From Asparagopsis taxiformis (lineage: Eukaryota > Rhodophyta > Florideophyceae > Bonnemaisoniales > Bonnemaisoniaceae), in NCBI GenBank assembly GCA_030407315.1, contig JALQPE010000476.1, positions 89,404 through 153,403 of the forward strand: a DNA stretch of 64,000 nucleotides, in the 5' to 3' direction. This document shows positions 2,656 to 51,724 of the stretch, piece after piece. The position numbers and the translations under genes were made by a program. How positions within the stretch are numbered: position 1 is the stretch's first letter; each line of letters starts with the position of its first letter. Under the pieces are notes generated by a model. That model saw nothing but the letters and a program-made list of their open reading frames with translations, was not told the DNA's origin and made no database searches.

Positions 2656-2658
2656 AGG

Positions 2659-28430: not shown

Positions 28431-28609
28431 TGCAAGCTTTACAAACCACTAGACGCATACTCCACAACTATACAACAAACACTACTCGCTATTTCAGACG
28501 ACGCGGTACACAAGTAGCGTAGTGTCAACCTTCCGTGACGCCTTCCCTGATGCGTACAAGTGGGAAACACGTCTAGACGTATATCACAAGTGAGCGCGGG
28601 AATTTTCGG

Positions 28610-30560: not shown

Positions 30561-30832
30561 CGTGTATCGTGCACGTCCACCCATTACCGGAAGCAAGTAG
30601 GCGATGAAGCACGTACAAACCCAATTGTTCTGCTATTTCTACCATAGACCATCGAGTCTAGAGATGTGAGGGAATCGTCCTGGAAATCATGCTCCAACCC
30701 ACGAGGGAATGGACAATCTAGTTTGAAAGCATGGAACGGAAGTACATTATACTAGGTTCATAGATTGGAAGTGATAAAGGAGATGATTATATTCTCGATA
30801 ATTGTTTACCAAAGTAGTAGTTGTTAAGCTAT

Positions 30833-33757: not shown

Positions 33758-33785
33758 ACGGGTGAGGCGCGTGAAGTCATCCGCA

Positions 33786-33800
33786 ATCACTACGGTGTTG
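33786..33800 (+). repeat. left CACTA terminal inverted repeat with AT target duplication
   Basis: 33786-33787 is AT (target duplication) and 33788-33800 is the 13-bp CACTACGGTGTTG terminus. Perfect inverse of 49044-49058. Confidence 0.85.
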
Positions 33801-33814
33801 AAAAGGGGGCCTCA

Positions 33815-34610
33815 GACAGTACTGCGAGACAGTGATTTTTACTGTCTGAGACAGTAAAAATCACTATGCGGCAAATGAAAATTAATGCCACACTTGGAGA
33901 CAGTGATTTGCACTGTCTGGCAGACAGTACGGAACACTGTCTGCAGACAGTAAAAAACACTGTCTCACAGTACTGTCTGAGGCAGTGAATGGAGACAGTA
34001 AAAATTAATGATTTATTCAATAGTTGGATATGATGTAATTTACTGTACTGGGCAGTGTTGGCGGATAGTGTTTTGTATTGGCCAAGGCAACATGGCCGGA
34101 TAGTGAAATACGCTGCCTGGGACAATAGATGGAACCAACACGGTGCACTGTCCTGGGCAGTACCTGGAGACAGTGATTTCCACTGTCCTGGGCAGTACCT
34201 GGAGACAGTGATTTTCACTGTCCAGGGCAGTACCTGTAGACAGTACTTTGTGCTGCCCTGGGCAGTACCTGTAGACAGTATTTCGTGCTGCCCTGGGCAG
34301 CACCTGTAGACAGTATTTCGTGCTGCCCTGGGCAGCACCTGTAGACAGTACTTTGTGCTGCCCTGGACAGCACCTGTAGACAGTACTTTGTGCTGCCCTG
34401 GACAGCACCTGGAGACAGTATTTCGTGCTGCCCTGGGCAGCACCTGGAGACAGTATTTCGTGCTGCCCTGGGCAGCACCTGGAGACAGTATTTCGTGCTG
34501 CCCTGGGCAGCACCTGGAGACAGTATTTCGTGCTGCCCTGGGCAGCACCTGGAGACAGTAAAAGTAGTGTCCTGATATAGTAAAATTCGGCGTCTGGGAG
34601 TGGTGGATGA
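33815..34610. repeat. left subterminal ACAGT array with 35-bp tandem units
   Basis: 33815-34020 holds irregular AGACAGT/ACTGTCT palindromes. From about 34110 to 34560 roughly a dozen units of 35 bp follow, each with CCTGGAGACAGTA and a 19-nt odd palindrome GTGCTGCCC-T-GGGCAGCAC. Because 35 is not a multiple of 3, a stop-free unit gives long open frames on both strands; these are not genes. Confidence 0.85.
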
Positions 34611-34619
34611 GATGGAGCG

Positions 34620-36370
34620 TCACGCTGTCGTGGGCATCTTTCTGGGGTAGAGGAAGGCAGTTCTAGCGCTATGAGGATGGGGCATGGACGGTATTCATAT
34701 GGGAATGGACAGAATAGTACGGCTAGGAATTTTTATTTCGTAGTGACTATGAGCTAGCGAGAGGTATACGCGGTAGGATAGGTAGCAATCTAAGAGGGTG
34801 CGATATGGGAAGCTTCACTCTGGATTTGTTTATTTGCGCAGGCTACATTGAGAATAAACAATCCCTATGTTAAAAATGCTACTACAACTAACACTATTCC
34901 GACGAGTAAAACTAAAACTACTAGAAAAGTCTAGAAATCTATCAACTGATTGAGCTGCATGAATAAGCTAGGAAATGAAGAGAAGAAGAAAAAATGATGT
35001 ATAGAAAGGAAACAAGTTAGTGACGTTGAATTGGAGAGGGAAATTGATGGTGATTAGGAGACTAACGTACCTTAACAAATACCATTGCATCCCAAATTGA
35101 GATATGTACTCACAGGCAGAAAAGAAAAGTAGTGGAGAAGTGGTAAGAGAGAAAGATAAATGAAAGTAGAAGTGGAACACTCACCTACTGGAAACCTGAG
35201 AAAGAGAAAACAAATAGAAAACTGGGTTAGTGGCGTGAGTTGTGGAAACGTACCATCATGGTTCATATCCGTCGGAGACAAAGCAACAACTTTGGCGGTG
35301 GAAGCAGTATTGATGATCTAAAACTTACGCTTTGGAAGCAGTTTAGATGATCTATACGGCTTCCACGGCCAGGGTTGTTGCTTTGTTTCCGACGGATATG
35401 AAGATGGAAACAGGGATTTCCAGAATCTGTTGTTTAAGTAGTACTCTACGGGCGGAAAAGACGTGTAGGAGAACAAAAGAGGGATAATTTTGAAACGGAG
35501 CGGTGCGATGGGAGGCCCAGTAAAACGATGCCTAGGGTGCGAATTACGCTTTGAAGCACATGACCTGGCAGAACAGGCGCAAAATTATTGTATTCTACCG
35601 CCTTCTCTAGTCTATAATGACGTCATCACTACAGAAATATAGGAAAAACACTAGCATATGGGGCCTACTGGAAAGGGGGAGGCGAGGAGTAGGAAAAATG
35701 GCGCACTTTCCTGGACGAGGAGTCCGCGCTTCCAGTGATGATTTGGACGGTATATATCGATGACGTCATTGCATGCTCTGAGCACACTTGGCAGGCAGTC
35801 AAAGCGGGCCACGTGGATGTGGGCGGCTAGGAAACAGCAGTGTGGGAGAAATTTTATGATTTTCATGTTGCAAGCGAACAGTGAATCTGCAGTTTAATAA
35901 ATAAATGTATGCTAATTTAAGATATCACACCGAGTACGATTAAACGAGAGATCGTGTTTTCACCTCGTGAATAGGGCCTAGAATATGGTAGAGTATACAA
36001 TTAGGAACTACGTGTATGAGAAAATCAGATTCAGTATTAGCGCTTAGAGCATCACCGCCTAATAAACGGAAATGGATACGTCTTTGACAGGTTTGTCTTG
36101 AGTAAATGCGATACAAGATAGCAAAACCATTTTGAGTAGGTCCAGCGCGGATAAAATAGCAATAATTCAGCAGAAAGTAATAAACATAGGACAAATAATT
36201 GTGGTGAACCAGTTCATCTGATCGAATGAAACCCTGGAAAGGTTTTATTAGGGTTGAAAGTAGTGGCAGAGAAGTAGTGGAGAAGATTAATTCTCCCTCA
36301 GCTAGCGAGACAATCATCACTACTGCTCAGTACAGTTAGCCTGAAATGCAAGTTGATCCTCGCAAAGTGA
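34620..36370. other. AT-rich CACTA interior without gene
   Basis: No coding region supported. Contains a fold-back element at 35262-35402. Confidence 0.5.
35262..35402. repeat. fold-back (inverted repeat) element, 141 bp
   Basis: The arms 35262-35290 and 35374-35402 (29 nt, 28 matching) begin TTCATATCCGTCGGAGACAA and end in the inverse. The loop contains two direct GGAAGCAGT...GATGATCT copies. MITE-like. Confidence 0.7.
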
Positions 36371-37354
36371 ATGTCAGAAGTCGTTCACAAGTGGTTGAAG
36401 AAGTCTGCAAAGATGAAGCAATACGTTCGAACGGATTTGGTAGCAGAAAACTCAAAAGAGGTCGGGGATGCTGATCATCGCATTGAAGAGCGCACTTTAT
36501 TCGTCCTTATTGACTTTCATGACGACTTGATAGACAGAAGAAGTCTGAGAACCAAGAACGGGATGTTTACAAACAGTTTTTATGACAAACTGGAATATGC
36601 TACGGGGACAAAGGCAATTCATCTTACTATGGCCGAAGAGGAAAGAGAACGAAGTCGTATGACCCCCAGAGAAATAGAACAAGCACTTGTTGTTGGTGCA
36701 AAAAGGAAAAGAGTAAGAATCTACTGTCGCAGAAGTAGAACAGGGCAATACTTCTACAGAAAAGGAAGAAGTGAAAACTCCTTATTTTCCTCAAGCAGAA
36801 GAGAGACTACCTGCATAAGCCCAAGTAGAACAGGAAGTTTCTGCTCTTGTGGAGCAAGAACAGGAAATCACTCCAATTGTCTTGGCTGAAGAGTTGATCC
36901 TGCTGTTGCCAAAGCGGTAGAAGAGGCACCTCTCAGCACCTCAAAAGAAGCAGCAGACTGTCTTGCTGCAGCAGAAGTCGGAGAACAGAAAGGTCCAGCT
37001 AAACGTCTTGCTGTGCTCCAAAAAGAAAAGGAACGTCTTTCTGCTTTGAGGACAGAGCGAGACCGTCGTGCTAGGGATAACTCTCCGGGAAGGATTGTCA
37101 GAGAAGATCGTCCTAAGGGAAGGAAACATAGAAGCGATACGCAAAGCGTGGAAATCAACTTGGACAATAGTGGTCGCATGGACATAGACACGGCTGGAAA
37201 AGGAGACCATGTTGAAGTTGTGCAGAACCGCTCTGTGATACTGAAACTTCGAATCAGGACGCCAGATATTAACAGCACTAGCCCGGAAAAGGAAGGAAAT
37301 GAAGATGCTGAAGTTGACGAGGATAAATCGAGGAGAAGCAGGGGTTCTGGTTGA
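36371..37354 (+). pseudogene. decayed charged protein gene inside CACTA, unknown
   Basis: The ATG at 36371 opens a plausible protein (TLFVLIDFHDDLIDRRSLRT; SFYDKLEYATGTKAIHL). Near 36730 the coherent frame moves to an acidic EVEQ/EEVKTP-type stretch, then returns near 36895 to a charged, coiled-coil-like part (RLAVLQKEKERLSALRTERD) that ends at 37354 with an acidic/basic tail. Two frameshifts and one stop make it a pseudogene. No family recognised. Its charged, coiled nature is compatible with a transposon accessory or gag-like protein, but that is a guess. Confidence 0.4.
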
Positions 37355-38029
37355 AGCGATGAAAACAAGTCCAGGCTGGATAAGAAGCGAAGAAGATAAC
37401 CCAAGATTCTCTGAACCGGGTACGCCTGATAAAAACAATGAGACTGAGCCTCCCCGGGAAAAGAATAGGAGATTCAATGCAGGGAAATGAACGACTGGAA
37501 AAGGAGCACTACTTTTCATTGATGAGCGAGAAAACTCCCTTTCAGACGGCAAATTTGCTGAAAAACTATTTGGGAAGTTGCCTTTATGCATTCCTTCTAG
37601 TTCGAGAGTGAAGTATTGTATCGCAGGAGATATACAATACTGAGTTCCTTATGAGCAATAGAGGAAACGATGGCGGGCGGTACTGGAATAGAACAAGAAG
37701 GCGATGAGCGTAATGACGCAGCCGTCTTCGTCTGCAACATTGAGAGAATGAGGAAGTCTTACAAAGGGGGCAGTTTCGGCGGAGCGCTAACAGAAAAGTC
37801 ATGGTAACGATCGTAGCGATGACTTTGCTGTGAGGCAACAAATCATTACAACAGTCACGATTTTCTTATCCCGTAAAAAAATTCTTGGTGATTTTTACCC
37901 GGTAAAAATTCTGCCACCACTGCAAGGAAACAAATCATTACAGCAGCCACGATTTTTACCCGTTAAAAAATTCTTGGTGATTTTTTTACCCGGTAAAAAT
38001 TCTTCAGTCACTGTAATGGCAACGGTTCC
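37355..38029. other. no gene; contains TTTTTACC/GGTAAAAA palindromes
   Basis: 37860-38000 has repeated TTTTTACCCGGTAAAAA-type palindromes and diverged copies of the TTACAGCAAAG hairpin. Confidence 0.5.
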
Positions 38030-39840
38030 TTACAGCAAAGCCATCGTTACGATGACTTTGCTGTAAGGAAACGTTTCATTACAGCAGCCACAATATTTTA
38101 CCCGGTAAAAAATTCTTTCGGCCACTGTAATGGAGACCTTTCCTTACAGCAAAGTCATCGTAACGATGACTTTGCTGTAAGCATCTCTTGTAAACGGCTT
38201 CTGCTGTAAGCGGTAGGGAGTTTAGTCCCTCTCCCAGCTTGGGAAGGATAGGAAGGGAAGTGTGAAATCCGGAACATCACGAGCGGTTAGTTTGGACGGG
38301 TGTTGACGGCTCTGGGGAGCACTCCGCGTTACGCTCAACCGGGTCTGAGCTGGCTGCAATACATGGTATTGCAGCAAGAGTGCACAAAATTTGTGCCACC
38401 ATTTCTCACGGCAGAGACTCGGACGGCCGAAATCCGACTTCGCTGAAAAGAGCTAGAACAGGTCTGGAGTACATCCAAGACCGCTGGAAAGGTACTATCA
38501 GAAATTTTACTGAGCATGCGGGGGGCTTTCCTAACCGAAATCGAGCATAGCGGTTCTGCGACCAAAGCTTACTCATGAAGGAGGTAGGGTGCTGGGTACC
38601 ACACCAACCATACCTAATTACATATGCAGTGTACTCCAGCGACCTACTTAGTATGCTACTTCCTCACTGTACAATGATTTTCAGGAAGTAGGATATGCTC
38701 TGGGCCTCAGGCCTGCTAGGCTAGCACGGGAGAGGAAGAAGGAAGGGTAGGCATGCAGAAGTATAGAGGCAGTAGTATGTGAAGACTATGGCAGTGGTAG
38801 AGAAGTATTTCATGCACCAAAGGGGCAGGCAGAGTGACACTAGAGACGTGGTGCGCAGGGCGAAGGGAGGTGGAGATGATGGAGGACAACAGACATGAGA
38901 GCGAGGGTTGAGACCAACGGCTTACAGATGGAGCAGTTTACTAGGGATGCTTACAGCAAAGTCATCGTTACGATGACTTTGCTGTAAGGAAAGGTTTCAT
39001 TACAGTAGCCATGATTTCTTTACCCGGTAAAAAAATTCTTCGGCCACTGTAATGAAAACGTTTTCTTACAGCAAAGTCATCGTAACGATGACTTTGCTGT
39101 AAGCATCCCTGGTAAACTGCCTCAGCTGTAAGCGGCTGGGAGCCTGGTCCCTCCCTCACCTTGGGAAGGGTGAGATAGGAATTGTGAAGTCGGGAACATT
39201 GTGGAAGGATGGTTTTGACGGCTTCGGGCGGCTTTGAAGAGCAATCTGTGTCTTGCTCACCCGGTCTAAACTACCTAAAAAGTTCAGTATTGCGAGAGGA
39301 GCACGAAAAATTACAACCACCATTTTCTCACAACAGAGATCCTGGCGGCCGAAATTCAAACTCGTTAAAATGGACTAGAGTTGGTGTGAACACCTCCAGG
39401 ACCTCTGGAAAGGTACTACCTGCACATTTTCCGAGGCTACAAGAGGCTGTTCTCTCCAATATCAAGCATAGATTATCGGTGCGCAAAATCTACTCCTGGT
39501 GCTGTGTAGCACATTGACTATACAAAACCGTCCGTTTCCCATTATAATAAACTATACTCTCAAGTAGGTAGGAATCTAGATATTCACTTTACATCGATGG
39601 TTATGAAGTAGGTTAGCCTAGGATTGAAGAACAGAAGGTAAAGGATAGGATGGTAGGCACGGGGTAAAATAAAGGCGGTGGTATGAGTAGAATATGGAAG
39701 TGGTAGACAGGAATTTAATGCACAGGAGGGGCGTGTGAAGTGACACCAGAGGCGCGGTGCATCACAGGAAGGGAGACTTGAATGATGAAGGACTAGAGAC
39801 ATGAGAGATAGGTTGTTGAGGCAAGCTTCTAGCTCTAATA
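38030..39840. repeat. tandem duplication of a ~0.92-kb unit
   Basis: Two diverged copies, about 38030-38945 and 38951-39840, are offset by 921 bp. Each starts with the TTACAGCAAAGTCATCG hairpin, a CCCGGTAAAAA palindrome and a second hairpin, then a shared ~700-bp body (for example GGGAAGG...GTGAA...GGGAACAT; CATGAGAG near the end). No coding region is common to both. Confidence 0.75.
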
Positions 39841-40010
39841 TATAACTACATTGCTCCTCTATATGCTACGCAATCCATTCGAGCAGTCCTAGTTAAAAAT
39901 GGACTATATGAATGTTTCATTTCAATATCAGCATTGTGCAGTTGAGCCTCTTCAAGGTCCGAAAACTTGTCCAGAGTACGCTTCCAGGCCACTTGAAGGC
40001 ATCCAGAACA

Positions 40011-40530
40011 CTTGCACTTCGTTCCTACAAAGTTCAATTTTGGCTATCACATCTCCAGTTGTGAGAATCTGGTGACCAAAAATCGATACATTCTTTCATC
40101 CCTACCTCGCAAGCCAGAAGCTTTGAGAGAAATTAGAGCAAGTTTCAGTGCTCCTCAGAGCCACTCTATCCCTTCTAGACCACTTCCACGTCGTTCCGAA
40201 AAAGTTCAATTTTGGCCATCACATCTCCAGTTGTGGGAATCTGGTTGCCAAAAATCGATGCATTCTGTCAGCCCTAGCGCGCAAACCGGAAGCTTTACAA
40301 ACGCATAGAACACTTTTCCGTACTCCCTAGAGCCACTCCAAACCTTGCAGACCACTTGCACATCATTCGGACAAAATTCAATTTTGACCATCACATCTCC
40401 AGTTGTGCGAATCTGGTGACCAAAAATCGATAAATGCTACCAGCCCATCCACGCAAGCCAGAAGCTTTGAGTGCAATTAAAACTCGTTTTAGTGCTCTCT
40501 AGAACCACCCCAACCCTTTCAGACCACTTT
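40011..40530. repeat. 172-bp tandem repeat, three copies
   Basis: AAGTTCAATTTTGG...CATCACATCTCCAGTTGT recurs near 40030, 40202 and 40374. The copies share CCAAAAATCGAT and CCAGAAGCTTT blocks. Non-coding. Confidence 0.8.
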
Positions 40531-40633
40531 GCAGCCTTTTTCGCGGGGTCCGAAATCGTCTCCTTCTTCTTCCCGAGTGAGAAACATCAGTCCCTCTCAG
40601 ATGCTTACAGAAAAGTTGGTTTACCATGGTTTC

Positions 40634-40915
40634 TTACAGCAAAGTCATCGTTACGATGACTTTGCTGTAATGTTTTGTTTTCTTACAGCAAAGTCATCGT
40701 TACGATGACTTTGCTGTAATGTTTTGTTTCCTTACAGCAAAGTCATCGTTACGATGACTTTGCTGTAATGTTTTGTTTCCTTACAGCAAAGTCATCTTAA
40801 CGATGACTTTGCTGTAATGTTTTGTTTTCTTACAGCAAAGTCATCGTTACGATGACTTTGCTGTAATGTTTTGTTTTCTTACAGCAAAGTCATCGTTAAG
40901 ATGACTTTGCTGTAA
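40634..40915. repeat. array of six 49-bp hairpin units
   Basis: Copies start at 40634, 40683, 40732, 40781, 40830 and 40879. Each is a 37-nt palindrome with 18-bp arms (TTACAGCAAAGTCATCGT and its inverse around a single central base) plus a 12-bp AT-rich spacer (TGTTTTGTTTCC-like). Two copies carry one central substitution. Related single hairpins occur at 38030, ~38150, 38951 and ~39066, and half-hairpins near 40990 and 41070. Confidence 0.9.
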
Positions 40916-41167
40916 GCAGCCGGGTAAACTGCCTTTGCTGTAAGAAAACCGAATAGCAGTTCCGACAGCTTGTCCAGAGAAAGCAAATCCGCCTTAACGA
41001 TGACTTTGCTGTAAGAAAACAGAGTACTTACAGTTCTGACAGCTTGTCCTGAAAAAGAAAATCCGCCTTAACGATGACTTTGCTGTAAGAAAACAGAGTA
41101 ATTACAGTTCCGACAGCTTGTCCTGAAAACCCATCCTCCTACACAAGTTTATTGTCTGTTACCTACC

Positions 41168-42013
41168 CTAGAGCTCTATTGACGTTCCCAGTCCCAGCTG
41201 TTGTACCACTTGAACACTCGTGTAATATTTTCGTATGGTGGAACACATTAGAATCATCATTGAAGGACAGCATCGATTCCTTTTATTGTTGCTGATAAAT
41301 CTGCACCGAGGGTTCAAACGCCGCAGTACCATAGTTGACCATAAAGCTGTTGTGAACAGTTTCATACAAATACCTCTTCTCAAATGCGCGCAGTGCGGAC
41401 ATGAACTCCAATCTCAATATGTTGTTATCACTCGACGTGGCGACCAGCAATCCTTCTTCGTGTTTTGCGAATCTTCAACCGCATTCTTCGTGATGTACGG
41501 TGTAATAATATTTACATAAGCCCTGGCACCTGGTAACAACATCGCCTTTAGAAGCAGATCCAGAATACAACATCGATTAGTTTCGCAATGCCACAATCCA
41601 TCCAGACGATCCTCATCGGCGAGCAACAAGGATATTTCCATACACCCTATCGACACAACGACAACCGCTACTACTTGGTAGGCAGATAGTTTGCGATGAA
41701 TTCCATTAGGCGTATTCGGAGTCAGAGTCCAGCACTCCCAAACATCATCCACTGCAAGAAACGCCCTTTCATCGCTAGCTCTCAAACATTTTGCAAATAA
41801 TTGCGAACAGCCGGACACAACGACGTTGCATGTCGCATCAATTCGTCGGCATTTGCATTTCACAGGGCGTACACAACCTCTGCAGTCGCATGATGAACGG
41901 CATCCAGGTCTGGCGTGTCCCACGCGGCATAGAAAGCAGAGTTGAGTTACGTGCAAATCATGTGCAACAGGTGATGGAAAGTTTGCTAATAACCGATGAC
42001 GTCGCGACGTCAT
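41168..42013 (-). pseudogene. possible decayed Cys-rich ORF inside CACTA
   Basis: 42013-41414 is open for 199 codons with a Cys-rich N-terminal block (CFLCRVGHARPGCRSSCDC) and a later folded-looking part (LTPNTPNGIHRKLSAYQ; LPGARAYVNIITPYITKNA). A frame change near 41480 continues to EFMSALRAFEKRYLYETVHN, then a stop near 41295. Its start overlaps the 42-nt palindrome. I recognise no domain; it may be a relic or chance. Confidence 0.25.
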
Positions 42014-42025
42014 CGGTTATTAGCA
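41984..42025. repeat. perfect 42-nt palindrome with TGACGTC core
   Basis: Arms of 21 nt, TGCTAATAACCGATGACGTCG and its exact inverse, meet at 42004/42005. The centre contains GACGTCGCGACGTC. Confidence 0.9.
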
Positions 42026-42851
42026 TTAGTGCGCGCACAGTGCGGCATGTTCTGCAATTTGCGGAATACCAATCACGGCGATCATCGCCGCTCATGATGA
42101 GTGTCGGCAAAATGGCTGAGTCGCTTGAATAGGCCTGCTAGGCTTGCAAACAAGAGTAAGCGGTACGAGCAATACGCAAGGCCGCATGGTCGAGATGGGC
42201 GGGAATATTGGCCTGCAACCTGGCCAGCATGGAGAGAGGCGTCTGCAAAACAACGTGTGCATTTCGGGTACCAAAGCGGTGCAAAAGCTGCGTCTAGGCT
42301 CGTTGAAACTCGAGCATGACAGCCCACATTACATATATGTGCGCATATATGCACATATGGTCCACCTGCGAAGATCTTTGACGCACATTTTTCTTACGCG
42401 GAGCGCAGCAACGTGGAATATGCGATGGGGCTTGGAAGACATGGGAATTGGTCACGGTCGTGTCGTCGCGATCCAGTTTATTCTTCGAAGTAAGGTGCAA
42501 CAGAGTGGGTAGGTCGACAAGCTTGTCCACGTGAACAGCACGAGCACTCCAGGAAGGGCGGTTTGGCTGGGATGCTGAGTTGGGTATTGTTGCAGTGGTT
42601 GTAATAGGGGGTCAGTTTCGGAGAGAGAGATTTCATCTGCCGGTGTCAAAAAGGTCGTCAATAGAAATTTGTGGGCCGGCATCTGACGAGAAGGACAGGT
42701 ATTTGTTAGGTGGGTGTCACGTCGAGGGAATTGCGAGAAATACATTTTCCCCTTGGACGACGCTTTCTGCCCGCAGAACGTGTTCTTCATCTAATGAAAG
42801 TTACTTGAAAGCCAGATTCCGGATGGTCTATCACGGCGGGATCCTGTTCGT
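42026..42851. other. CACTA interior, no supported gene
   Basis: A minus-strand open frame at 42452-42790 has one hydrophobic stretch but no other support. Confidence 0.4.
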
Positions 42852-43232
42852 CTAGAATCCTGCCACTTGAGGCGTCCCTTCTTCAACCATCACTTCGTGG
42901 AAGTTCTGAACTTGCGCGTTCGCGGTCGGTGTGGGTGAGATGGACGGCACGTTCGCGGTCGGTACCACGTAGCCATGCGCGGAGACGGGTGTGAAGCTTA
43001 CGGAAGGCCGCTCGATAGTGAATGTCATGGGTGGAGGTGGTGGGTGCGACCGAGCTCCGTCACTAGGGAGGCCCAAGCTGTGCAGTCGAAGCGATCGGGA
43101 TGTGTAGGAAAAAGGGTGAGAATATGGAGGGCAAAGCAGACTGGTCGGGGTCGAGGAGAAAGGCAACAAGTGGTTTGCGGCTGTCAGCGAGCAGACAAGG
43201 CCAGTCAGGGCAGCATAGCGAAAGATAAACAT
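42852..43232 (-). CDS. small putative secreted Pro-rich protein
   Basis: The ATG at 43232 gives 126 aa. The N-terminus MFIFRYAALTGLVCSLTAAN looks like a signal peptide. The rest is Ser/Pro/Thr-rich with a PPPPP run and two related PTAN segments, and has no cysteines after the leader. No family recognised. It lies within the CACTA insertion, so it could be captured sequence or chance. Support is limited to the leader and the intact frame. Confidence 0.3.
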   Translation of the reverse strand: MFIFRYAALTGLVCSLTAANHLLPFSSTPTSLLCPPYSHPFSYTSRSLRLHSLGLPSDGARSHPPPPPMTFTIERPSVSFTPVSAHGYVVPTANVPSISPTPTANAQVQNFHEVMVEEGTPQVAGF

Positions 43233-43772
43233 ACGTTTATCTTAAAAAATGAACGTTCATTTTTGCCAAATCATTGCATATGGTGCCACGTTTTACACAT
43301 AGCATTTTGTATATTTACAAGTCTTGTTCACTATAAAGCGTACCTTGCAATTTGTTGGAACGTCGATGCATGCCCCGACGTTGCCAAAGTATGCATACTC
43401 TTGAACATCTCCCACCATGGCTGGTATCGTGCACAATACCCACAAGATGATTTACCGACCTTCCTTACCCTCGCATTCATCTACCTATGGATGCCGTTTC
43501 TGGACATGGCTACTACGCGATTATGAGCGATTGGTAGAGACAATGAGAAATATACAACGAAAACTGTCCACGCAATGGAGCGCAGTCTCTAGCCCATTTC
43601 CTCTTACTCTCGCCCCTCTTCAACAACTTTTCCACTCCTTGATCACTCCCAATCTCAACAGGCGCTCAGATTGATCGCGTCGCTGAGGCGTAGAAACGCC
43701 TCCATTATCCGACCATTCTGGCGTTGAAAGAGGTGTTTACAATGCGCATTGACGCGCGTCAATTTACCAAAA

Positions 43773-45627
43773 ATGCTTCAGCCGCTTTTTTCCGATGTTG
43801 TTATCACAATTGGGAGGCATATGATGCTCGGGCCGCGACGTTCTTTCCAGGATATGTCTACTGCTGTGCGTTTGTTTGAGTTGTGTATCGATCACACAAA
43901 TGACCCTGAACCTATGATGATACTCGCTGAAATACTAATCACTGGACCTGCAGGAGTAGACAAAGACACAAGTCGTGCCATGGAATTATGTGCAACCGTT
44001 GTCCATGATTCTGATGGTTGTTACCTCGTATGTGATCTTGCAAGAAAATTGGCAGATGTAAGAATGGGAAAGCCCGCAGATATGCGACTTGCAATAGATC
44101 TATGTGAGATGTGTATTGAACAGAACAACCATCCACGTGCCATGGTGGACCTTGCTGAAATTTTTCTCACTGGCGGTCCAGGCGTGGAAAAAGACGTTAA
44201 TCGTGCGATGGAACTATGTGAAATATCCCTAGATGGAAGCGAAACCAGTTTCTACATTACTAGAGCTGCCAAAAAGTTGATGCATGTCGGTTCTGGAAGG
44301 CCCAGAGACATTCAGTCTGCAGTGCGTCTTTGCGAGATGTGTATAGAGAAGAAAAATAATACAAGAGCTATGAAAATGTTGGCCAAATTGTTCATGACTG
44401 GGGCTCCTCACGTTGAAGAAGATATTGATCGAGCGATGGAGTTGTGGGAGAAGTACCTCGACCGAGGTGGACCATGTGAAGCGCTGACTAAGTTTGCACG
44501 TAAGATAGTGGATGAAGCGTGTGGGATAACGAAGTATGTGCGATCTGCAATACGATTGTGCGAGATGTGTATAGACAGAAGGGATGATTTGGTTGCGATG
44601 ATAATTCTAGCCGTATTGCTCATGGTTAAAATTCCAGGTGTCGAAAAGGAAGTCGATCGTGTGATGAGTCTCTGCAAAAGTTACCTTGAAAGAAGCGGAG
44701 ACTGTGGTGCGTTGATCAAGTTTGTGAGAAGAATGGCATTTGGAGATTGTGCAATATGTCATGATATGCAGGTAGCCGTGCGGCTATGCGAGATGTGTAC
44801 AGATATGAGAAACAAGCTACCCGCGATGGGAATTCTTGGTGAACTACTTATCACTGGATCATCGGGCGTAGGAAAAGACATTAGTCCTGGAATGGAACTT
44901 TTCGACAAGTATCTCCTTGCAAATGGATCAAGCGAAAAATTAACCCACTTGGCAAGGAACATCGCTGATGGAACAGATGGTTTAACTAGGGATGTGCAGC
45001 TGGCAGCACAGATATGTGAACTGAATATCGACAAGAAGAACGACCTAGGAGCTCTGTTGCTTTTGGCCGAGATACTTCTGACTGGAGAACAAAATGTAGA
45101 GAGAGTTGTTGATCGTGCAACGGAGCTCTGTGAGAGATATCTGCTTGAGAATGGGTCCAGGGAAGAGTTGAACAAAATAGTATGGAGAATAGGACAAGGA
45201 ATATTTGTGGTACTACCACTGACTAGTAGTCATGGATGCTCGGCCTTTAATGCAGCTATTTGATATGTCTATAGAGAAGAACGATGGAAACTCCATGGTG
45301 ATTCTGGCCAAGTTACTCTTTGCTGGAGTACCGAATGTCGGCAGAGACGTTAACCGTGCAATTGGTCTTTGTCAGAAATATATGTTTGCGAATGAATCCG
45401 GGAAAGCGCTTATCTCCCTTACGACGGAGATAGTGAACGAAAGACATGGAGCTATTTCGGATATGGGTTTCGCAATACAGCTATGTGAGATCTGTCCAAA
45501 GAAGAAAGAGTATGAGGAGCCTATGCTGATTCTGGCCAAGATCTTTATTAGTGGAGATTCCAACGTCGAGAAGTTAATCGTGCATTGAAGCTTTGTGAAA
45601 ACTTCCCCTACAAGCAATAACTCAGGG
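43773..45627 (+). CDS. Sel1/TPR-like repeat protein (C-terminal frameshifts)
   Basis: The first in-frame ATG is at 43773 (MLQPLFSDVV). The main frame runs to 45263, about 496 aa, built of roughly seven copies of a ~73-residue double repeat: LCEMCIE..N...AM..LA...LTG..GVEKD..RAMELCE, then a second helix pair ending R.(A/K)KI...G. The A..LA..L..G..GV..D..RA pattern is the Sel1-like repeat, an alpha/alpha solenoid for protein binding. A frameshift near 45230 leads to two more repeats in another frame (to 45588), and a ~4-nt loss at ~45568 precedes a last half-repeat ending at about 45627. Either the product stops at 45263 or the 3' end is decaying. It sits inside the CACTA element as likely cargo. 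Confidence 0.65.
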
Positions 45628-47425
45628 CATGTAAAAGCTGAATGTTTATCCCATATAGCGATGGAAGTGATGTTTGAAAAATGAGGAGAGCTGAAGATGG
45701 AAAAGGGGAAGTGATGGCAAGATGTGCAGGTGGACGGACGACCGGGCACGGAATGTTGAACTAGTTGACGAACGGTGGCGCTTTTATGGTACTGAAAGAT
45801 CTTTTACCTGCAGGTAACGCCATGGCGTTATGGACGGCAGTTGTTAACGAACGCGGTCCAAGTACAGGGCAGAGAGGAAGTTTTGTACAAGACACGTTTA
45901 GAGTGCGATTAGCAGGTGTTTTATGTTTGTGAGGGAGTTGGACGTTGTGGTTATGCACTAAGCGAAAGAACGGATAAGTGGATTTTGTGGCAATTTTTTA
46001 TGTTGGAGTGACGAGTTGAGTGTCAAGATGGTTTAGTAGAATTAGGGGCAGAAAGGGGGCGTGAAGAATATTGGAAGATGCGACTCATAGCACGAGTTCA
46101 GCGAGATGATAACGCAGTATATAAATTTAACTGCTACTCGTACAGACCGTAAGTCAACGCATTTGCTGCAACAGAATAGAGCGCTGCACTACAGTTATCA
46201 GGCTCTATAGGACCCATCCAACAAGCGGCACATAACTCGCAGCAACAAGCACCCAAATCAGCACCAGCGCATCAAGATTACAATCTCACCGACCGTAGTA
46301 GTAGTTCTAAATATGATATCGCGTCTCCGTCTCTCGCGCCCCCACTTCTCCCTATCGTCCCTCCGTGAAACCAAGCGAGCGCTTTCCCACCGCCTCCTCA
46401 CTAGGCACGCTGCGCATGCTCGACTATCTCGCCACCGTTTCCTTTGCACACTCGGGCGCCATCCTGGCCGCGACGGCCGGTCTGTACGTTTCCAGCATGC
46501 GCATGCCACAACAATATCAGCGCTGATATTGTTGTGGAAGACTACCGCGAGTAATTATATTGATTGATAGGTAGTGAGGGTGAGCACGGGAATTGAAGTA
46601 CTTGCATCACTTTGCAACTTTTCGCTCCCATCTCCCTCTGTCATACTGACAGTTACAAGATAGATAGATTTCTTTTGCATTAATTAGTGGCGGGGCGAGA
46701 ATCGATGTAGATTAATCTACCCAATTAATTGGGACGGCGGCTGAGTAACAGTGTTCAATGCAAATGTGAGCCCACAATATTCGGCGATAGTGCCAATATG
46801 GTTCATTCGGATCGTCCGGGTGCCGAAACAGCAGATTCACCATTCATTCACTTGTTCATTACTACCTCATGTTTCGTGTGATGTGCACTTCAATGCTCCA
46901 AATCATCACACCTACCCAGCCACCTTCCTTCCCCTCCCGAATCCACCCCAATAATTTCAACACTTCTGCCGAACACACAGAACTCTCCTCTATCTGCTCT
47001 GTATTTAACAGACGCCTCAGCCCAGCTCGAATACTTTAACCTATCCAACCATGGTTGGGTAGGGTGCTAAGGTGCACCCTACCAAACAACCACTTTCTAC
47101 CACTTCAGACGTATCCCAAACTTTCCTTCTCACTCATCCCCACCCGACTACCAACTCCGCAGCACCCATGACAACGATATACAACACGTCATCTTGCCGT
47201 TCCCAGACCTCTCCCAGGTCGTTGTACACACCGTCGCAGTGGACATTTCTGCGACGCACGCCTTCTGTCCCCATCATCCCCTGCCACGCAGTACATCAGC
47301 AAGCTGCCTCCGCCACCATAAAAGTAAAAAATGCCGAAAAAAAGATTGTAGAAGGGTGGAGCAATGAAGCTGACATTAAATAGAAGAATCCGCACTAAAA
47401 GGAGGCCGACTCGCTCAAGACTGAC
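45628..47425. other. CACTA interior without supported gene
   Basis: Contains the 32-nt palindrome at 46506-46537; otherwise nothing clear. Confidence 0.45.
46506..46537. repeat. perfect 32-nt palindrome
   Basis: CCACAACAATATCAGC and its exact inverse, with no spacer. Confidence 0.9.
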
Positions 47426-47728
47426 ATGGCAGCAGAGCGCGCATTTCTCAAATGGCTATGGACGGCGATGCACATCGAGGCCATCAGTACGTTTGCCATG
47501 GAGAAGGGCCACAGGCGGGCGGGAACTGCAGTTTTCAATGTCGCATTGGTGGCCGCCTTCACAGTTGTTGTGCTCGGCACTTTTTTGTATTACCGAAGTC
47601 GAAAGGCGCTGCCCACCGGAGAGATGGCACACATTCCAGTGGTGTTGAGGGAGCACAGAGCGTTAGTTCTAGTGGGAGCTCTGGCTGTTGTGATTTTGTG
47701 TGCATCGGTGAATGGGGCCATGGGATGA
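47426..47728 (+). CDS. small membrane protein, DUF202-like
   Basis: The ATG at 47426 gives 100 aa. AAERAFLKWLWTAMHIEAIS at the start resembles the ERTFLxW...A block of DUF202 proteins, the membrane domain also found at the C-terminus of VTC polyphosphate synthase subunits. Two hydrophobic segments follow (VALVAAFTVVVLGTFLYY and ALVLVGALAVVILCASV), separated by a basic YRSRKAL loop, as in that family. The usual RT of ERT is RA here. It lies within the CACTA insertion and may be captured host sequence or a remnant of a longer gene. Confidence 0.45.
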   Translation: MAAERAFLKWLWTAMHIEAISTFAMEKGHRRAGTAVFNVALVAAFTVVVLGTFLYYRSRKALPTGEMAHIPVVLREHRALVLVGALAVVILCASVNGAMG

Positions 47729-47887
47729 TGGTACACGTGGCGGGCAACGCGTAAACATGACAGGGTGCGGAGTTTTTATACGTGTGGAAGATGTTGTGGA
47801 GAGTGTTTGCAGGAGAGGTGGATGGATGAATGTGTGTGGGTTTGAAACATGTCACGATGGAAATCATTGGGAAGGGACTGCTAAGCA

Positions 47888-48082
47888 ATGGGTTGTTTCT
47901 TGATCTCGAGCGTGCTCCTCTCCCTAACAAGCGCAGTCGCGTTCTTCGTCAGCATCTACGCGCAGCTAGCACTCTACTTCTACCACATCGTGGCCTATCC
48001 AAGCTGCGTTGACACCAATAACGAGCTCTTGATTGCCCGAATTGTATTGGATGTCCTCGTGTCCACCGTTGTGTGCGGATAG
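47888..48082 (+). CDS. very small membrane peptide, doubtful
   Basis: The ATG at 47888 gives 64 aa with two hydrophobic segments (SSVLLSLTSAVAFFVSIYA and IVLDVLVSTVV). No family recognised; may be chance. Confidence 0.2.
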   Translation: MGCFLISSVLLSLTSAVAFFVSIYAQLALYFYHIVAYPSCVDTNNELLIARIVLDVLVSTVVCG

Positions 48083-48689
48083 GTAGTTGGTGCGTAGTTG
48101 GGTTAGGTCACGGAGTTTGTAAAGGACTCGTAGCTCTTCGGGTGTGGAATCACGAGAATGGGAAGCCCGGCCAAAAAAGGTGATGTTTTGTGGTGCAGGG
48201 GCAGGAGTTGATCGGGTGCATGTTCGGCGTAAGTGATTGTAGCGTGGAAACGCGCTACAAGCAGATGGTCAGGTGGCCGACAAGAGTCAGAGTGGAGGTC
48301 TATACTGGCGCGATGAGGTTGTGGAGATTACAACAGAGTGAAAGGGTAGTTTGGTAGGCTGTTCGTGCCTCATCTGTCTGGGGCTCAGCGGCGAAGTGTA
48401 GTACTTGTTCATGACAGCTATTTTCTTTATTCCCATTGAAAGCTTTACTATTAACAGAACTACTAAATCAACTCAACGAAAATCTCAAACTCGAACTGTC
48501 GCTGCCAACGTGCATCAGTAGTGTCAATCTTTCTTTCTACGACGTCCTATTCAGCATCTAGGTTCCCTGCATCCAAATATCTGTAAAGCTCCATCACAAT
48601 TACTATAGTCGTATACCACACACCATTCCAATATTAACCTTCAAACTAACCCATTGCTCCTTATTTCCTCTCAAGTCTACTCCACCAGA
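48083..48689. other. no gene seen
   Basis: AT-rich CACTA interior before the right subterminal array. Confidence 0.45.
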
Positions 48690-49035
48690 CAGTGATGTCA
48701 ACCAATGTACGTTACTACCCGCAGACAATACAATTTGCTATCTACACTACTGTCTACAGATTTCCCCAGACAGTGCAGTAATACAGTACAATGTATTGTC
48801 TCAGACAGTAAAATGTACTGTCTGCACATACTGTCTGGCGGCAACACTTCCGGACAGTAAAATTTACTGTTCTGGACAGTAAATTTTACTGTTTTTGGTA
48901 CTGTCCAGATTTCGTGCCATTTTATTGCTGCAGCAGTATTCTGAAATTTCCAGACAGTAAATTTTACTGTCTCCGCGCACTGTCTTGGCCAGACAGTAAT
49001 TTTTACTGTCTCAGACAGTAAATTTACTGTCTTTT
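48690..49035. repeat. right subterminal ACAGT/ACTGT palindrome array
   Basis: Repeated AGACAGTAAATTTTACTGTC-type palindromes, denser toward the right terminus. Same core motif as the left subterminal array in inverted overall arrangement. Confidence 0.85.
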
Positions 49036-50060
49036 TTCATTCCCAACACCGTAGTGATGCTATGCATAGCATTGAGACGATGCAGTCCGTCGATCACGGT
49101 CACGTTCGCATTGGCATGGAATTTGCCATTCTGGAACAGACGCGTGTCGGCGGACAAATGCGTGTTCTGCGACCTCAGCACCGTCACAGTGATACGCGAA
49201 GAGCTCACATACCCCACCGCCAACATATTGTTGCGCAGGTCCTCCACGTGGTCTTCTTTGACATCGCGAAGGGTCACGGCCGGTTCCACTAGCTGCCTCA
49301 CCAACACAGTCGCTCCTTCTCCGACGTAATCCGACGTCACAAACTTGGGCACCATAATTTGCGTCCCCTGCTGCTCACGAATGCTTTCCGCCACCTCCGG
49401 TTCGTCGTCCACCTCGGTTACGTCCTGCGTAGTAGCTTCGGTGACGTTGGAGCGAGCAGGGTGCTTCGTGCCTCCACTGGAGGCTCTGGCAGAGCGAGCA
49501 GGGCGCTTCGTGCCTCCCGAAACCGGGACGGAGCGTGCTGGATGCTTCGTACCCCCCGAACCAGTGATTTCGCCTGCTGGACCGGTACTGGGCATCCGTC
49601 CCGAGCTGGCCTGGTTCGTCGCTGCGTTGAAGTTTGACGCTGCAGCAGGGGTACGAATGTCGCTAGAGCCATCCTCCGCAGCGGGGCGCATCATCCGAGT
49701 ATCCCAAGGGTAAAACGCCGCGGCGTATGCTCCACCCATCGTCTCCGGCGGTCCCTCGGCGCCATCAAACATGTACGGGAACGGGAGGTCCTTGAACTTG
49801 TCCTTAGTCGCAATGTTGCGCACGACGATATAGTCGGCCTCGTCGGTTTCCGGCAGCTTGTGGTTGTGCAGCGTGCGCGGAAGGCCAACATCGCCACCAG
49901 CAGTGCTCACCGAAGCCGTCCCAATATGCACAGCCGCACCGTCCACGTCCGCAAACAAGTCGACATCGACGCCGCGCTTGAGTCCGCGCGACTCCGCTGA
50001 CGCGCTCACTTGATCGCCGCAAACCGTTGAAAACAAACTGCTGAAATGCGTATCCGCCAT
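49011..50060 (-). CDS. 5' part of split ParB-2OG dioxygenase gene: ParB-like domain
   Basis: The ATG at 50060 (MADTHFSSLF) is the likely start. 334 host codons run to 49059; the last 16 codons and stop at 49011 come from the CACTA terminus. Residues 1-160 are unknown. About 165-205 contain three SGGTK(H/R)PARS repeats, a basic Gly/Pro motif reminiscent of AT-hook-type DNA binding. About 250-334 are ParB-like: VRQLVEPAVTLRDVKEDHVE, the AVGY turn, and VIDGLHRLNAMHS, matching the ParB GxxR (DGxHR) nucleotide-binding motif. ParB-fold proteins bind DNA, act as CTPases or nucleases, and in phages accompany DNA-modification enzymes. The protein is cut right after the helix following DGLHR; the continuation is at 33787 downward. 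Confidence 0.7.
   Translation of the reverse strand: MADTHFSSLFSTVCGDQVSASAESRGLKRGVDVDLFADVDGAAVHIGTASVSTAGGDVGLPRTLHNHKLPETDEADYIVVRNIATKDKFKDLPFPYMFDGAEGPPETMGGAYAAAFYPWDTRMMRPAAEDGSSDIRTPAAASNFNAATNQASSGRMPSTGPAGEITGSGGTKHPARSVPVSGGTKRPARSARASSGGTKHPARSNVTEATTQDVTEVDDEPEVAESIREQQGTQIMVPKFVTSDYVGEGATVLVRQLVEPAVTLRDVKEDHVEDLRNNMLAVGYVSSSRITVTVLRSQNTHLSADTRLFQNGKFHANANVTVIDGLHRLNAMHSITTVLGMKKDSKFTV
49044..49058 (-). repeat. right CACTA terminal inverted repeat with AT target duplication
   Basis: CAACACCGTAGTG at 49044-49056, then AT at 49057-49058. Perfect inverse of the left end. Confidence 0.85.
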
Positions 50061-50344
50061 GGTTGTTGAGTTGGAAAGGAAAAGAGATGGTTGACGTTGA
50101 CGTATTCGAGTGATGTGGATGGTATGTTTCACGTTAAGTTGAAGAATGGTCGTGAACGCCAATCGCTGGAAATAATAACACAATACAACCGAAATTTTGT
50201 TAGGTACACACCTATCGTGACCGCTGGAATGCAAGACAGGCAATCGAGATGTGAGTGTCCGTTCAGAACGGGCCCGAGTCGGGCTCTCGAAACCTGACGA
50301 GGTGGCGTGAAGCAGGCAGTGTCCTTGATGTGTAATGTGTTAAA

Positions 50345-51500
50345 ATTACAGCTGTCAAGCTAGGCGGCTTTTGGGGCGGCTGCGAGCACCCCTTTATCCG
50401 GGGAACACCCTGATTTGAGTTAAAATTTGGGCTATTCTCAAAAACATGCACATGTGAACATGTTTTTGAGATGGGGGTGTGCCGTACGGCACAATCGACC
50501 CGCCCAAATCGTTGATTTTTGCAAGATTTTTTGTGCCCGAAATTTTAGAATTTCTGGGCTGGCCAGCAGTGCATCTGAGATGGACATCCACCGGACGTCC
50601 ATTTCAGGTTGGTCGTGTGCTGCCTACATCCACGCATTGCAGCAACTAAGCAGGCGGGTTCACTACTAATATAAAGTGCACGGAATATGAGTAACGTGAT
50701 GGGTGAGTAGTGTTTCTGTTGAGGGAGTAAGGCGGGACCATGATGAAACACGGAAGAAGATTTCTCCCTAGCATAACTTAGGCTTGAAGCCTGCAATCGG
50801 CCCATCTTCCGGCGCCATTTAGCCTCACAGTTAGTGCTTACAGAAGCCAGTGATGACCCCGCTCGGGGCGGCGGCCGGTTCCTGGGGCCGTTGTGGCCAA
50901 ATTAGACACCCTGATTTGAATTAAAATTTGGGCTATTCTCAAAAACATGCACATGTGAACATGTTTTTGAAATGGGGGTGTGCCGTACGGCACAAACGAC
51001 CCGCTGAAATCGTTGATTTTTTACAATTTTTTTGTGCCCGAAATTTTAGAATTTCCGGGCTGGCCAGCAGTGCAATCGAGCTGGACATCCACCGGACGTG
51101 CATTTCAGGTTGGTCGTGAGAGAGTGGGGTGGGACCATGATGGAACAAGGACCAAGACCTGTCCCTGGCGTATTGAGCCTGAAATTGACCCTTTGTCAGA
51201 CGCCATTTAGCCTTACAGTTAGTGCTTACAGAAGCCAGTGACAACCCCACTCGGGGCGGCGGTCGGTTCCTGGGGCCGTTGTGGCCAAATTAGACACCCT
51301 GATTTGAATTAAAATTTGGGCTATTCTCAAAAACATGCACATGTGAACATGTTTTTGAGATGGGGGTGTGCCGTACGGCACAATCGACCCGCTGAAATCG
51401 ATGTTTTTTGCAATATTTTTTTCTGCCCTGAATTGTAGAATTTCTGGGCTGGACAGCAATGCAACTGAGCTGGACATCCACCGGGCGTCCATTTCAACTT
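50345..51500 (+). repeat. hairpin repeat array II (A-B-A units) with terminal ~75-bp motif
   Basis: Three units of the same family as array I. Hairpins lie near 50434, 50935 and 51323 (spacing 501 and 388 bp). The left end carries AATTACAGCTGTC...GCGAGCACCCCT, whose inverse closes array IV at 57070-57145. The array fills the 1.66-kb gap between the ParB-2OG gene start and the methyltransferase-SET stop. Confidence 0.9.
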
Positions 51501-51724
51501 GGTCTTGTATTTTGCATCTGCACGCATAACAGCAACCAAGCAGTCAGGTTCACTGCTCGGACGAAGTGCACCTAGAGTGTGAACGATTGGTTTTTGACAG
51601 GCGAGTACTGCCGAATAGGTTTCACCCTGGACTAATGGTGGCTGGACATTCTGCATTATATGATATACTTCAACTCTGGAACGTAGCTTTATTTGTAGTC
51701 GAAATGAAAACATCTTTCGTGACC

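What the first reader, a model, noticed from the sequence alone, without database searches (positions are those of the whole stretch)
33786..49058. 15.3-kb CACTA-type insertion splits one gene, with in-frame join across it
CACTACGGTGTTG and its exact inverse lie 15,269 bp apart, both continuing into ACAGT-type subterminal arrays and both flanked by AT. The ParB-like frame is open up to one end and the dioxygenase frame is open from the other, with no ATG of its own before it. Removing the element plus one AT joins AGC-AT to T-GCG (Ser-Ile-Ala), in frame, giving about 1318 codons. An in-frame join has a 1 in 3 chance alone, but with the perfect repeats and truncated domains on both sides the case is strong. 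Gene callers would report two unrelated genes.
Basis: partly seen in the sequence, partly recalled or inferred. Interest (0 to 1): 0.92.

Follow-up and report, generated by a model that had tools for sequence, protein, structure and literature searches.

The report
Transposon inside DNA-modifying giant transposon
A 15-kb jumping element has landed inside a gene that belongs to another, very abundant 20-kb jumping element, and both kinds of element carry, whole or in remnants, enzymes that look built to chemically mark DNA and chromatin, so mobile DNA here appears to travel with its own epigenetic toolkit.

Summary
A 15,269-bp CACTA-type element (33788-49056, perfect 13-bp inverted ends, AT duplication) splits an open frame. 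The unnamed 141.5-Mb genome holds 873 exact uninterrupted copies of the site and one filled copy, this one; an intact copy encodes the predicted 1,318-aa protein. But the broken gene belongs to another transposon: a Plavaka-type element (about 20 kb, ends CGTCTGTG...CACAGACG, 2-bp duplications) whose genes occur in roughly 800-970 copies. It carries a ParB-like/2OG-oxygenase fusion, a DNA amino-methyltransferase-SET fusion, a coiled-coil protein and a Plavaka transposase. The invading CACTA family is modular, with different cargo in different subfamilies; its two longest sampled copies carry ParB-2OG and methyltransferase-SET genes homologous to those it broke. Thus two transposon families with different ends carry related DNA-marking kits. 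TET/JBP, DNMT and SET genes in transposons are known; this combination was not found in the open papers searched. A self-marking, anti-silencing function is inferred. The ParB and 2OG calls rest on motifs, weak profile hits and mutual homology; structure prediction failed. The organism is unidentified, and other species could not be searched.

The parts
33788..49056 (.). Inserted CACTA-type element, 15,269 bp
   Evidence: Exact inverted 13-bp ends, AT duplication; 873 empty copies of the site vs 1 filled
33786..33787 (.). Target-site duplication AT, left
   Evidence: single AT in the empty site of C581
49057..49058 (.). Target-site duplication AT, right
33788..34560 (+). 'GA' end of the CACTA element: 13-bp TIR, ACAGT subterminal repeats, 35-bp tandem array 34148-34560
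48700..49056 (-). 'GG' end of the CACTA element: ACAGT/ACTGT subterminal repeats and 13-bp TIR
36371..36889 (+). ORF in the CACTA element that looks like a decayed remnant of the ParB-2OG gene of the long relative C74
   Evidence: Near-identical stretches (KNGMFTNSFYDKLEYATGTKA) seen by eye in the ORFs printed; no separate alignment run
37758..41129 (.). Repeat-rich middle module of the CACTA element, with inverted repeats, partly shared with relatives
43728..45263 (+). Cargo ORF with Sel1 repeats (a 32-mer of it occurs in 16 places genome-wide)
   Evidence: PF08238 E=2.9e-14; this part of the element is not covered to half of any 1-kb bin by the 14 other stretches compared
26999..57893 (.). 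Invaded Plavaka-type element (element 1): from its A-end to where element 2 cuts it; includes the CACTA element; its own other end is not in the window
   Evidence: Terminal motif at 26999; same gene set in other copies
26999..27031 (+). A-end of element 1: CGTCTGTGTTCTCGGAAATGGACGCGGACGTCC
   Evidence: 2,415 exact copies of the two-version motif genome-wide, control 0; 2-bp duplications at 6 of 9 paired ends read
49057..50060 (-). 5' half (334 codons) of the broken gene, ParB-like part, ATG at 50060
   Evidence: DG-x-HR motif aligned with relatives
30833..33787 (-). 3' half (984 codons + stop) of the broken gene; C-terminal 2OG-oxygenase-like domain (HND...H...R)
   Evidence: homologous to the C74 2OG part (E=2e-13); H185, D187, H259, R275 of alignment A1 invariant
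51725..54922 (-). Gene for a 1,065-aa DNA amino-methyltransferase + SET protein (ATG at 54922)
   Evidence: PF01555 E=4.1e-15 and PF00856 E=1.1e-6; ATG; catalytic-motif 29-mer in 811 copies
28645..30603 (+). Repeat array of element 1 with four 16-bp palindromes TGTGCCGTACGGCACA
50341..51571 (+). Repeat array with three copies of the same palindrome; its left edge is an inverted repeat of the stretch ending at 57137 (read by eye)
55249..57137 (-). Repeat array, inverted, with three copies of the same palindrome
57317..57892 (+). 5' part (192 codons) of a coiled-coil protein gene ('gene 3', about 760 aa in another copy), cut by element 2
   Evidence: 150 scored matches at 97-100% identity, open frames up to 797 aa; copy L039
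57894..64000 (+). Element 2: second Plavaka-type copy, starting with its G-end inside gene 3 and running off the contig end
   Evidence: the contig ends at the window end
60037..61749 (+). Plavaka transposase ORF of element 2
   Evidence: PF18759 E=3.9e-25; 30-mer in 971 copies

Best explanation
SHOWN: A 15,269-bp CACTA-type DNA transposon, with the marks of ordinary cut-and-paste integration (inverted ends, 2-bp AT duplication), sits in the ParB-2OG gene of one copy of a very abundant Plavaka-type transposon and breaks that copy's gene. SHOWN: copies of the invaded family carry ParB-2OG, amino-methyltransferase-SET, a coiled-coil protein and a Plavaka transposase, between near-identical 33-bp inverted ends; the invading family has a shared chassis with different cargo in different subfamilies; of its long copies, C74 has two ParB-2OG genes (one in two frames) and a methyltransferase-SET gene, and C64 has an intact ParB-2OG and a ParB-methyltransferase-SET gene, homologous to those of the invaded family. 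INFERRED: these enzymes act together on the element's own DNA and chromatin. The methyltransferase writes N6-methyladenine (or N4-methylcytosine), SET adds a histone mark, and the 2OG enzyme oxidises a methylated base (removing a host mark or hypermodifying the base), so the element stays expressed and escapes silencing. SPECULATIVE: the ParB-like domains place the enzymes on the element, possibly at the 16-bp palindromes beside its genes.
For: Insertion: 873 empty; 1 filled; 1,318-aa uninterrupted paralogue; N part 329/334 and C part 982/984 identical. Mobility of the invaded element: 2,415 end motifs, control 0; two paired-end copies of 20,044 and 20,774 bp that contain the gene's site (C52, C88); 2-bp duplications at 6 of 9 pairs read; the same order of genes in C127, C156, C171, C242, C254 and, without gene 3 listed, C88. 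Kit: MTase + SET in both families (E=4e-48); 2OG homology (2e-13 and 1e-80) with the metal/2OG residues invariant; ParB-like phrog_1033 E=0.003 on the C64 ParB-MTase-SET protein. 40 of 40 scored MTase copies (of 4,815 first-look candidates; the window's among them) are full length and 100% identical, so amplification is recent. Ten copies of one 16-bp palindrome lie beside the two genes.
Against: No activity, expression or methylation data. 2OG: no Pfam or PDB hit and no PHROG hit below E=0.08, and AlphaFold2 on three sequences failed (pLDDT 28). The window's ParB part has no profile hit, and its match to C74 is weak (E=0.09). The CACTA 1,288-aa ORF has no Pfam match. The ParB-like segment may lack the part that binds parS in true ParB (recalled). 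Whether the methyltransferase makes 6mA or 4mC is not decided by sequence. Cargo-only CACTA copies such as the window's lack an intact kit, so they would have to be helped in trans. 3 of 9 pairs in each family lack a matching duplication.
Confidence: 0.72

Rival explanations
1. The 15.3-kb stretch is an intron of an intact host gene.
For: Leaving it out restores an in-frame ORF.
Against: Ends are CACTA TIRs with a 2-bp duplication; 873 exact empty copies and 1 filled one; the 13-mer ends occur 1,866 times in the genome.
Confidence: 0.01
2. ParB-like and 2OG parts are two separate genes that happen to abut the element.
For: Gene callers would see two ORFs.
Against: 38 of 45 other scored copies have one open frame of 1,352 codons or more; C581 reads through.
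Confidence: 0.01
3. Assembly chimaera: the contig joins two repeat copies.
For: Both families are repeated hundreds of times; four of the listed contigs begin or end within about 35 bases of the CACTA 13-mer, which suggests that the assembler breaks there; the junction is unique.
Against: A chimaera would not be expected to give matching AT duplications with the two complementary halves of one gene on either side; 5 of 8 other sampled family copies show their own 2-bp duplications.
Confidence: 0.04
4. The modification genes are not an anti-silencing kit but a weapon or defence: they mark or erase marks on competing elements or viruses, or serve in element self-recognition.
For: The ParB-MTase part resembles phage proteins (phrog_67, phrog_1033); both element families carry the kit, as rivals might; one family has inserted into the other here.
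Against: The same gene set in rival elements argues for a shared need; the nested insertions here show no protection (element 2 and the CACTA element both sit in element 1).
Confidence: 0.2
5. The genes are hitchhikers with no role in transposition, kept open only because amplification is very recent.
For: Near-identity of copies means open frames alone do not prove selection; cargo in the CACTA family does vary.
Against: Homologous gene pairs are kept in two families whose proteins are only 23-29% identical, with catalytic residues conserved.
Confidence: 0.2

Closest known systems
CACTA / EnSpm DNA transposons
   Same: CACTA ends, short TSD, subterminal repeats, copies with differing cargo
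   Different: TSD 2 bp rather than the usual 3 (recalled; 3 bp for the fungal EnSpm families in PMC12730594); the putative 1,288-aa transposase of the longest copy is not recognised by Pfam; long copies carry ParB-2OG and (ParB-)MTase-SET genes
Plavaka (CMCT clade), as in Kojima 2025, PMC12730594 (outline with abstract, Results parts 1-2 of 3, and passages seen)
   Same: Plavaka transposase (PF18759), 2-bp TSD, some Plavaka families carry a TET/JBP gene
   Different: Ends CGTCTGTG...CACAGACG differ from the PlavakaA (TGT..ACA) and PlavakaB (CATCA..TGATG) ends given there; carries amino-MTase-SET and a ParB-like fusion, neither described in the parts seen
TET/JBP-carrying fungal DNA transposons (PU, AG, PE types; PMC12730594)
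   Same: DNA transposons carrying a 2OG oxygenase likely acting on DNA; several superfamilies share related genes
   Different: ParB-like fusion, no detectable profile similarity in the libraries used, HxD rather than the PE type's HxE; accompanied by a methyltransferase
DNMT-bearing retrotransposons of Symbiodinium and charophytes (PMC5890265, abstract and outline seen)
   Same: Transposable element carries its own DNA methyltransferase in many copies
   Different: C5-cytosine MTase in retrotransposons; here an amino-MTase fused to SET in DNA transposons, with an oxygenase
SET-carrying HarbingerS and MuDR transposons of Phytophthora (cited in PMC12730594, passage seen)
   Same: SET histone methyltransferase gene in a DNA transposon
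   Different: Here SET is fused to an amino-MTase
Bdelloid N4CMT (PMC8885841, passages seen)
   Same: N6_N4 MTase fused to a chromatin domain in a eukaryote
   Different: Described as a captured host gene with a chromodomain; here a transposon gene with SET
Plavaka-flanked giant repeats of Amoebidium (PMC11244446, passages seen)
   Same: Large repeats flanked by a Plavaka transposase, intron-poor genes
   Different: Many of those genes encode tyrosine recombinases; the words dioxygenase and adenine do not occur in that text

Membership tests
CACTA/EnSpm (inserted element) | Inverted ends beginning CACTA | tested here: met
   CACTACGGTGTTG perfect at both ends; 1,866 copies genome-wide
CACTA/EnSpm (inserted element) | Short (2-3 bp) target duplication | tested here: met
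   AT here; 6 of 9 complete copies have a 2-bp duplication, 3 do not
CACTA/EnSpm (inserted element) | Subterminal repeat arrays | tested here: met
CACTA/EnSpm (inserted element) | CACTA-type DDE transposase in autonomous copies | tested here: inconclusive
   1,288-aa ORF in C74, no Pfam match; GDYPA...CxxC seen by eye (motif recalled); hhalign with Plavaka not significant
Plavaka (invaded element) | Plavaka transposase | tested here: met
   PF18759 E=3.9e-25 in element 2; Plavaka 30-mer between paired ends in C52 and C88; element 1's own transposase is not in the window
Plavaka (invaded element) | 2-3 bp target duplication | tested here: met
   2 bp at 6 of 9 paired ends read, none at 3; element 1 itself could not be tested, its second end being outside
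Plavaka (invaded element) | Termini TGT..ACA (PlavakaA) or CATCA..TGATG (PlavakaB) | tested here: not met
   Ends are CGTCTGTG..CACAGACG; termini as stated in PMC12730594
TET/JBP-type 2OG oxygenase | HxD...H metal triad plus 2OG-binding Arg | tested here: met
   Invariant H185, D187, H259, R275 in three divergent members; roles assigned from recalled family knowledge
TET/JBP-type 2OG oxygenase | Recognisable TET/JBP or 2OG sequence profile or fold | tested here: inconclusive
   No Pfam or PDB match, no PHROG match below E=0.08; model failed, pLDDT 28
PE-type TET/JBP | HxE in place of HxD | tested here: not met
   HND, HTD, HTD
Amino-methyltransferase (N6_N4, PF01555) | PF01555 with DPPY/F motif | tested here: met
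   TDPPYN / TDPPFN; nearest solved DpnA (5.9e-8) and CcrM (0.0028)
SET lysine methyltransferase | PF00856 | tested here: met
ParB-like domain | ParB profile match | tested here: inconclusive
   phrog_1033 E=0.003 on the C64 ParB-MTase-SET; GmrSD_N at E=0.21, below cut-off, on the C74 ParB-2OG; window part only by the DGxHR motif
ParB-like domain | Binding to palindromic parS-type sites | not testable with these tools
   Ten 16-bp palindromes found; binding untested

The most novel reading that the evidence does not exclude
Two separate eukaryotic DNA-transposon families, each in hundreds of copies in one genome, carry a self-contained, ParB-addressed epigenetic operating kit: a fused DNA amino-methyltransferase/histone methyltransferase as writer and a ParB-2OG oxygenase as eraser or hypermodifier. 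The ParB-like parts recognise 16-bp palindromes placed around the element's own genes, as ParB recognises parS, and so give the transposon a mark that spreads over its own DNA and separates it from silenced DNA.
Probability: 0.2. Interest if true: 0.93.

Novelty: new variant of a known kind. Interest (0 to 1): 0.72.

Why it matters
It gives a testable case in which mobile DNA does not merely erase host marks but appears to bring a writer and an oxidase together, in two families, at very high copy number. It bears on how amino-methylation of DNA enters eukaryotic genomes and on how transposons escape silencing. It also warns that gene callers could report the halves of this gene, and hundreds of copies of it, as ordinary host genes.

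Tried and rejected
Viral contigs: no relatives of the 2OG part or the MTase-SET protein; phages: none for the 2OG part. PDB by sequence: none for the 2OG part; the ParB part gave one chain at E=0.06, read as chance. AlphaFold2 of the 2OG domain with three sequences gave pLDDT 28 and was discarded; no fold search was run. I considered that gene 3 is homologous to the 512-aa protein of C74 and dropped it for lack of support (E=0.22). Plavaka and the 1,288-aa CACTA ORF could not be shown to be related. Organism: PF00172 was sought to test for a fungus, but nothing rang in the controls either, so it says nothing; that the genome is eukaryotic is inferred from its size and its transposons. Left out of the CACTA duplication count (15 stretches looked at, 9 counted): C59, C10, C23 and C78, which I had cut at an internal CACTA end with a common flank (CCAGCCCTTATA), and C4 and C116, which start at the contig start with no or one base of left flank. 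MTase orientation used only the first 100 listed of 873 sites and 78 of the 100 listed MTase places (of 811), typed over; 53 sites could be paired and 47 could not.
Full report
THE OBSERVATION. The 13-mer CACTACGGTGTTG begins at 33788 and its exact inverse ends at 49056; these are the only copies in the window. The element is 15,269 bp, flanked by AT on both sides. Both ends run into ACAGT/ACTGT arrays, including a 35-bp tandem array at 34148-34560. Leaving out the element and one AT in a script gives a single minus-strand frame through the junction, with its ATG at 50060 and 334 + 984 = 1,318 codons.

THE INSERTION IS REAL. The window lies in contig C476 of an unnamed 141.5-Mb genome in 3,156 contigs. 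The 30-mer across the empty site occurs 446 + 427 = 873 times, the reversed control 0. The filled left junction occurs once, in the window. The C581 copy matches window 26999-33787 at 99.35% and then 49057-51463 at 96.9%, overlapping by the AT only; its site reads ...GGCAAT|GCTATGC... with one AT. Its protein is 1,318 aa and agrees with the window's halves at 329 of 334 and 982 of 984 residues. Of 46 scored matches to the C-terminal part (of 3,995 first-look candidates) all 46 are free of stops; of the 45 outside the window, 38 lie in an open frame of at least 1,352 codons and 7 in a shorter one.

THE BROKEN GENE BELONGS TO ANOTHER TRANSPOSON. The C581 match starts sharply at window 26999, with CGTCTGTGTTCTCGGAAATGGACGCGGACGTCC. 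This motif, in two versions (A-end, G-end, differing at two positions), occurs 1,210 + 1,205 times in the genome, control 0, and in the listed places A- and G-ends often face each other. At 9 such pairs that I chose from the list, the flanks show a 2-bp duplication in 6 and none in 3. Two of these pairs enclose the gene's insertion site: C52 (20,044 bp) and C88 (20,774 bp). Combining lists, the order ParB-2OG site, MTase, gene 3, Plavaka is seen in C127, C156, C171, C242 and C254; in C88 site, MTase and Plavaka lie between both ends, and in C52 site and Plavaka. In these five the MTase points away from the ParB-2OG gene, while in the window both point the same way. The pattern lists show only the first hundred or so places and one search scored 150 of 1,626 candidates, so these are examples, not a census. 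Exact 29- to 30-mer counts: site 873, MTase motif 811, Plavaka 971. If most were near full length they would make up about a tenth of the genome (inference).

ITS GENES. (a) ParB-like/2OG fusion: the one that is broken here. (b) MTase-SET, 1,065 aa: PF01555 E=4.1e-15, PF00856 E=1.1e-6, nearest solved structure DpnA; 40 of 40 scored copies, the window's among them, are full length and 100% identical in protein. (c) Gene 3, about 760 aa with a coiled-coil-like stretch, of which the window holds only the first 192 codons because a second Plavaka-type element starts at 57894. (d) The Plavaka transposase, seen in the window only in that second element (PF18759 E=3.9e-25).

THE INVADING FAMILY. I compared 15 stretches, 9 of them complete with both flanks readable; 6 of these 9, the window copy included, have 2-bp duplications and 3 (C64b, C21, C101) do not. 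The complete ones share about 2 to 2.7 kb at one end and about 0.5 kb at the other; most, but not the C64/C74 subfamily, also share a repeat-rich middle. The several kilobases next to the second end share little between subfamilies (window alone; C4, C116, C101, C21, C23, C78; C104; C19, C104b; C59; C64a, C64b, C74; C10 unplaced). C59, C10, C23 and C78 had been cut at an internal end, so they say nothing about the first end. The window's version carries a Sel1-repeat ORF whose 32-mer occurs in 16 places. The longest copy, C74 (25,264 bp), encodes a 1,288-aa ORF (a transposase by position and motif only), a 1,087-aa ParB-2OG ORF, a second ParB-2OG in two frames, a 1,016-aa MTase-SET ORF with a ParB-like ORF upstream in another frame, and two further ORFs; C64a has the second ParB-2OG intact (1,257 aa) and a single 1,161-aa ParB-MTase-SET ORF. 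A 35-mer of the 1,288-aa ORF occurs 442 times. The window's copy has only what looks, by eye, like a remnant of a ParB-2OG gene (36371-36889).

HOMOLOGY OF THE TWO KITS. 2OG parts: window versus C74 E=2e-13, C74 versus C64 E=1e-80; the three-way alignment keeps H, D, H and R of the 2OG triad invariant. MTase-SET: E=4e-48, with the TDPPxN and DxFSGT motifs kept. ParB-like N-terminus: C74 versus C64 E=1e-44; window versus C74 only E=0.09, on the DG-x-HR stretch. For the N-terminus of the C64 ParB-MTase-SET protein PHROGs gives 'ParB-like partition protein' at E=0.003, and a family of unknown function, phrog_4272, at E=2.2e-5. Against this, no Pfam or PDB search recognises the 2OG part and no PHROG below E=0.08, and structure prediction failed.

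HOW IT MIGHT WORK. The insertion is plain transposition. What the enzymes do is inferred: a writer (6mA or 4mC) fused to a histone writer, and an oxidase. In a survey of unicellular eukaryotes 6mA is associated with transcriptionally permissive regions (PMC12695648, passages seen), and transposon-borne TET/JBP genes are proposed to help escape from silencing (PMC12730594, abstract). A self-marking, anti-silencing role fits best. The element has ten copies of the perfect 16-bp palindrome TGTGCCGTACGGCACA in three arrays beside the two genes; ParB proteins bind 16-bp palindromic parS sites (recalled). That the ParB-like parts address the enzymes there is my boldest reading and is untested.

NOVELTY. 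TET/JBP in fungal DNA transposons, DNMTs in retrotransposons and SET in Harbinger/MuDR elements are in print (PMC12730594, PMC5890265). A ParB-2OG fusion together with an amino-MTase-SET fusion, in two families, did not show in the listings of my open-access searches (one search returned no paper, and the others list only the best-ranked ones); 'ParB' has 0 occurrences in PMC12730594. Passages of PMC13297926, PMC11075540 and PMC12344493 mention no such element. Most subscription papers, among them Iyer et al. 2014 (recalled), are not held, so the absence is limited to these searches.

Noticed in passing
50341-57137; C581 copy L035/L036: The MTase-SET segment lies between inverted repeats and occurs in both orientations: of 53 site-MTase pairs formed from 100 listed sites (47 unpaired), 35 are divergent and 18 tandem as in the window.
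   Followed up: partly
33784-33787 joined to 49059-49074 (empty site): The CACTA insertion split a 20-bp perfect palindrome (CAATGCTATGCATAGCATTG) of the empty copies, near its edge (read).
   Followed up: no
28645-30603, 50341-51571, 55249-57137: Ten perfect 16-bp palindromes TGTGCCGTACGGCACA in three repeat arrays.
   Followed up: partly
57894: A second Plavaka-type element starts inside gene 3 of the first one and runs off the contig end.
   Followed up: partly
43728-45263: Sel1-repeat ORF as cargo of one CACTA subfamily, 16 exact copies of a 32-mer.
   Followed up: partly
contigs C4, C63, C64, C116 of G000: Four of the listed contigs begin or end within about 35 bases of the CACTA 13-mer: assembly breaks at this repeat, or ends of free copies.
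   Followed up: no
L036 position 3179: In C581 the MTase gene is cut before its SET domain and followed by TAGGGGATTTAGGGG repeats.
   Followed up: no
2629-8654: Three similar stretches (about 75-81% nucleotide identity) in a row, possibly a tandem gene family.
   Followed up: no
61731-61790: The Plavaka ORF appears to change frame near 61746 (small intron or indel).
   Followed up: no
21000-28000: High-GC stretch (about 0.60) with long ORFs at 22083-23240 and 24122-26731 without Pfam matches, ending about where element 1 begins.
   Followed up: no
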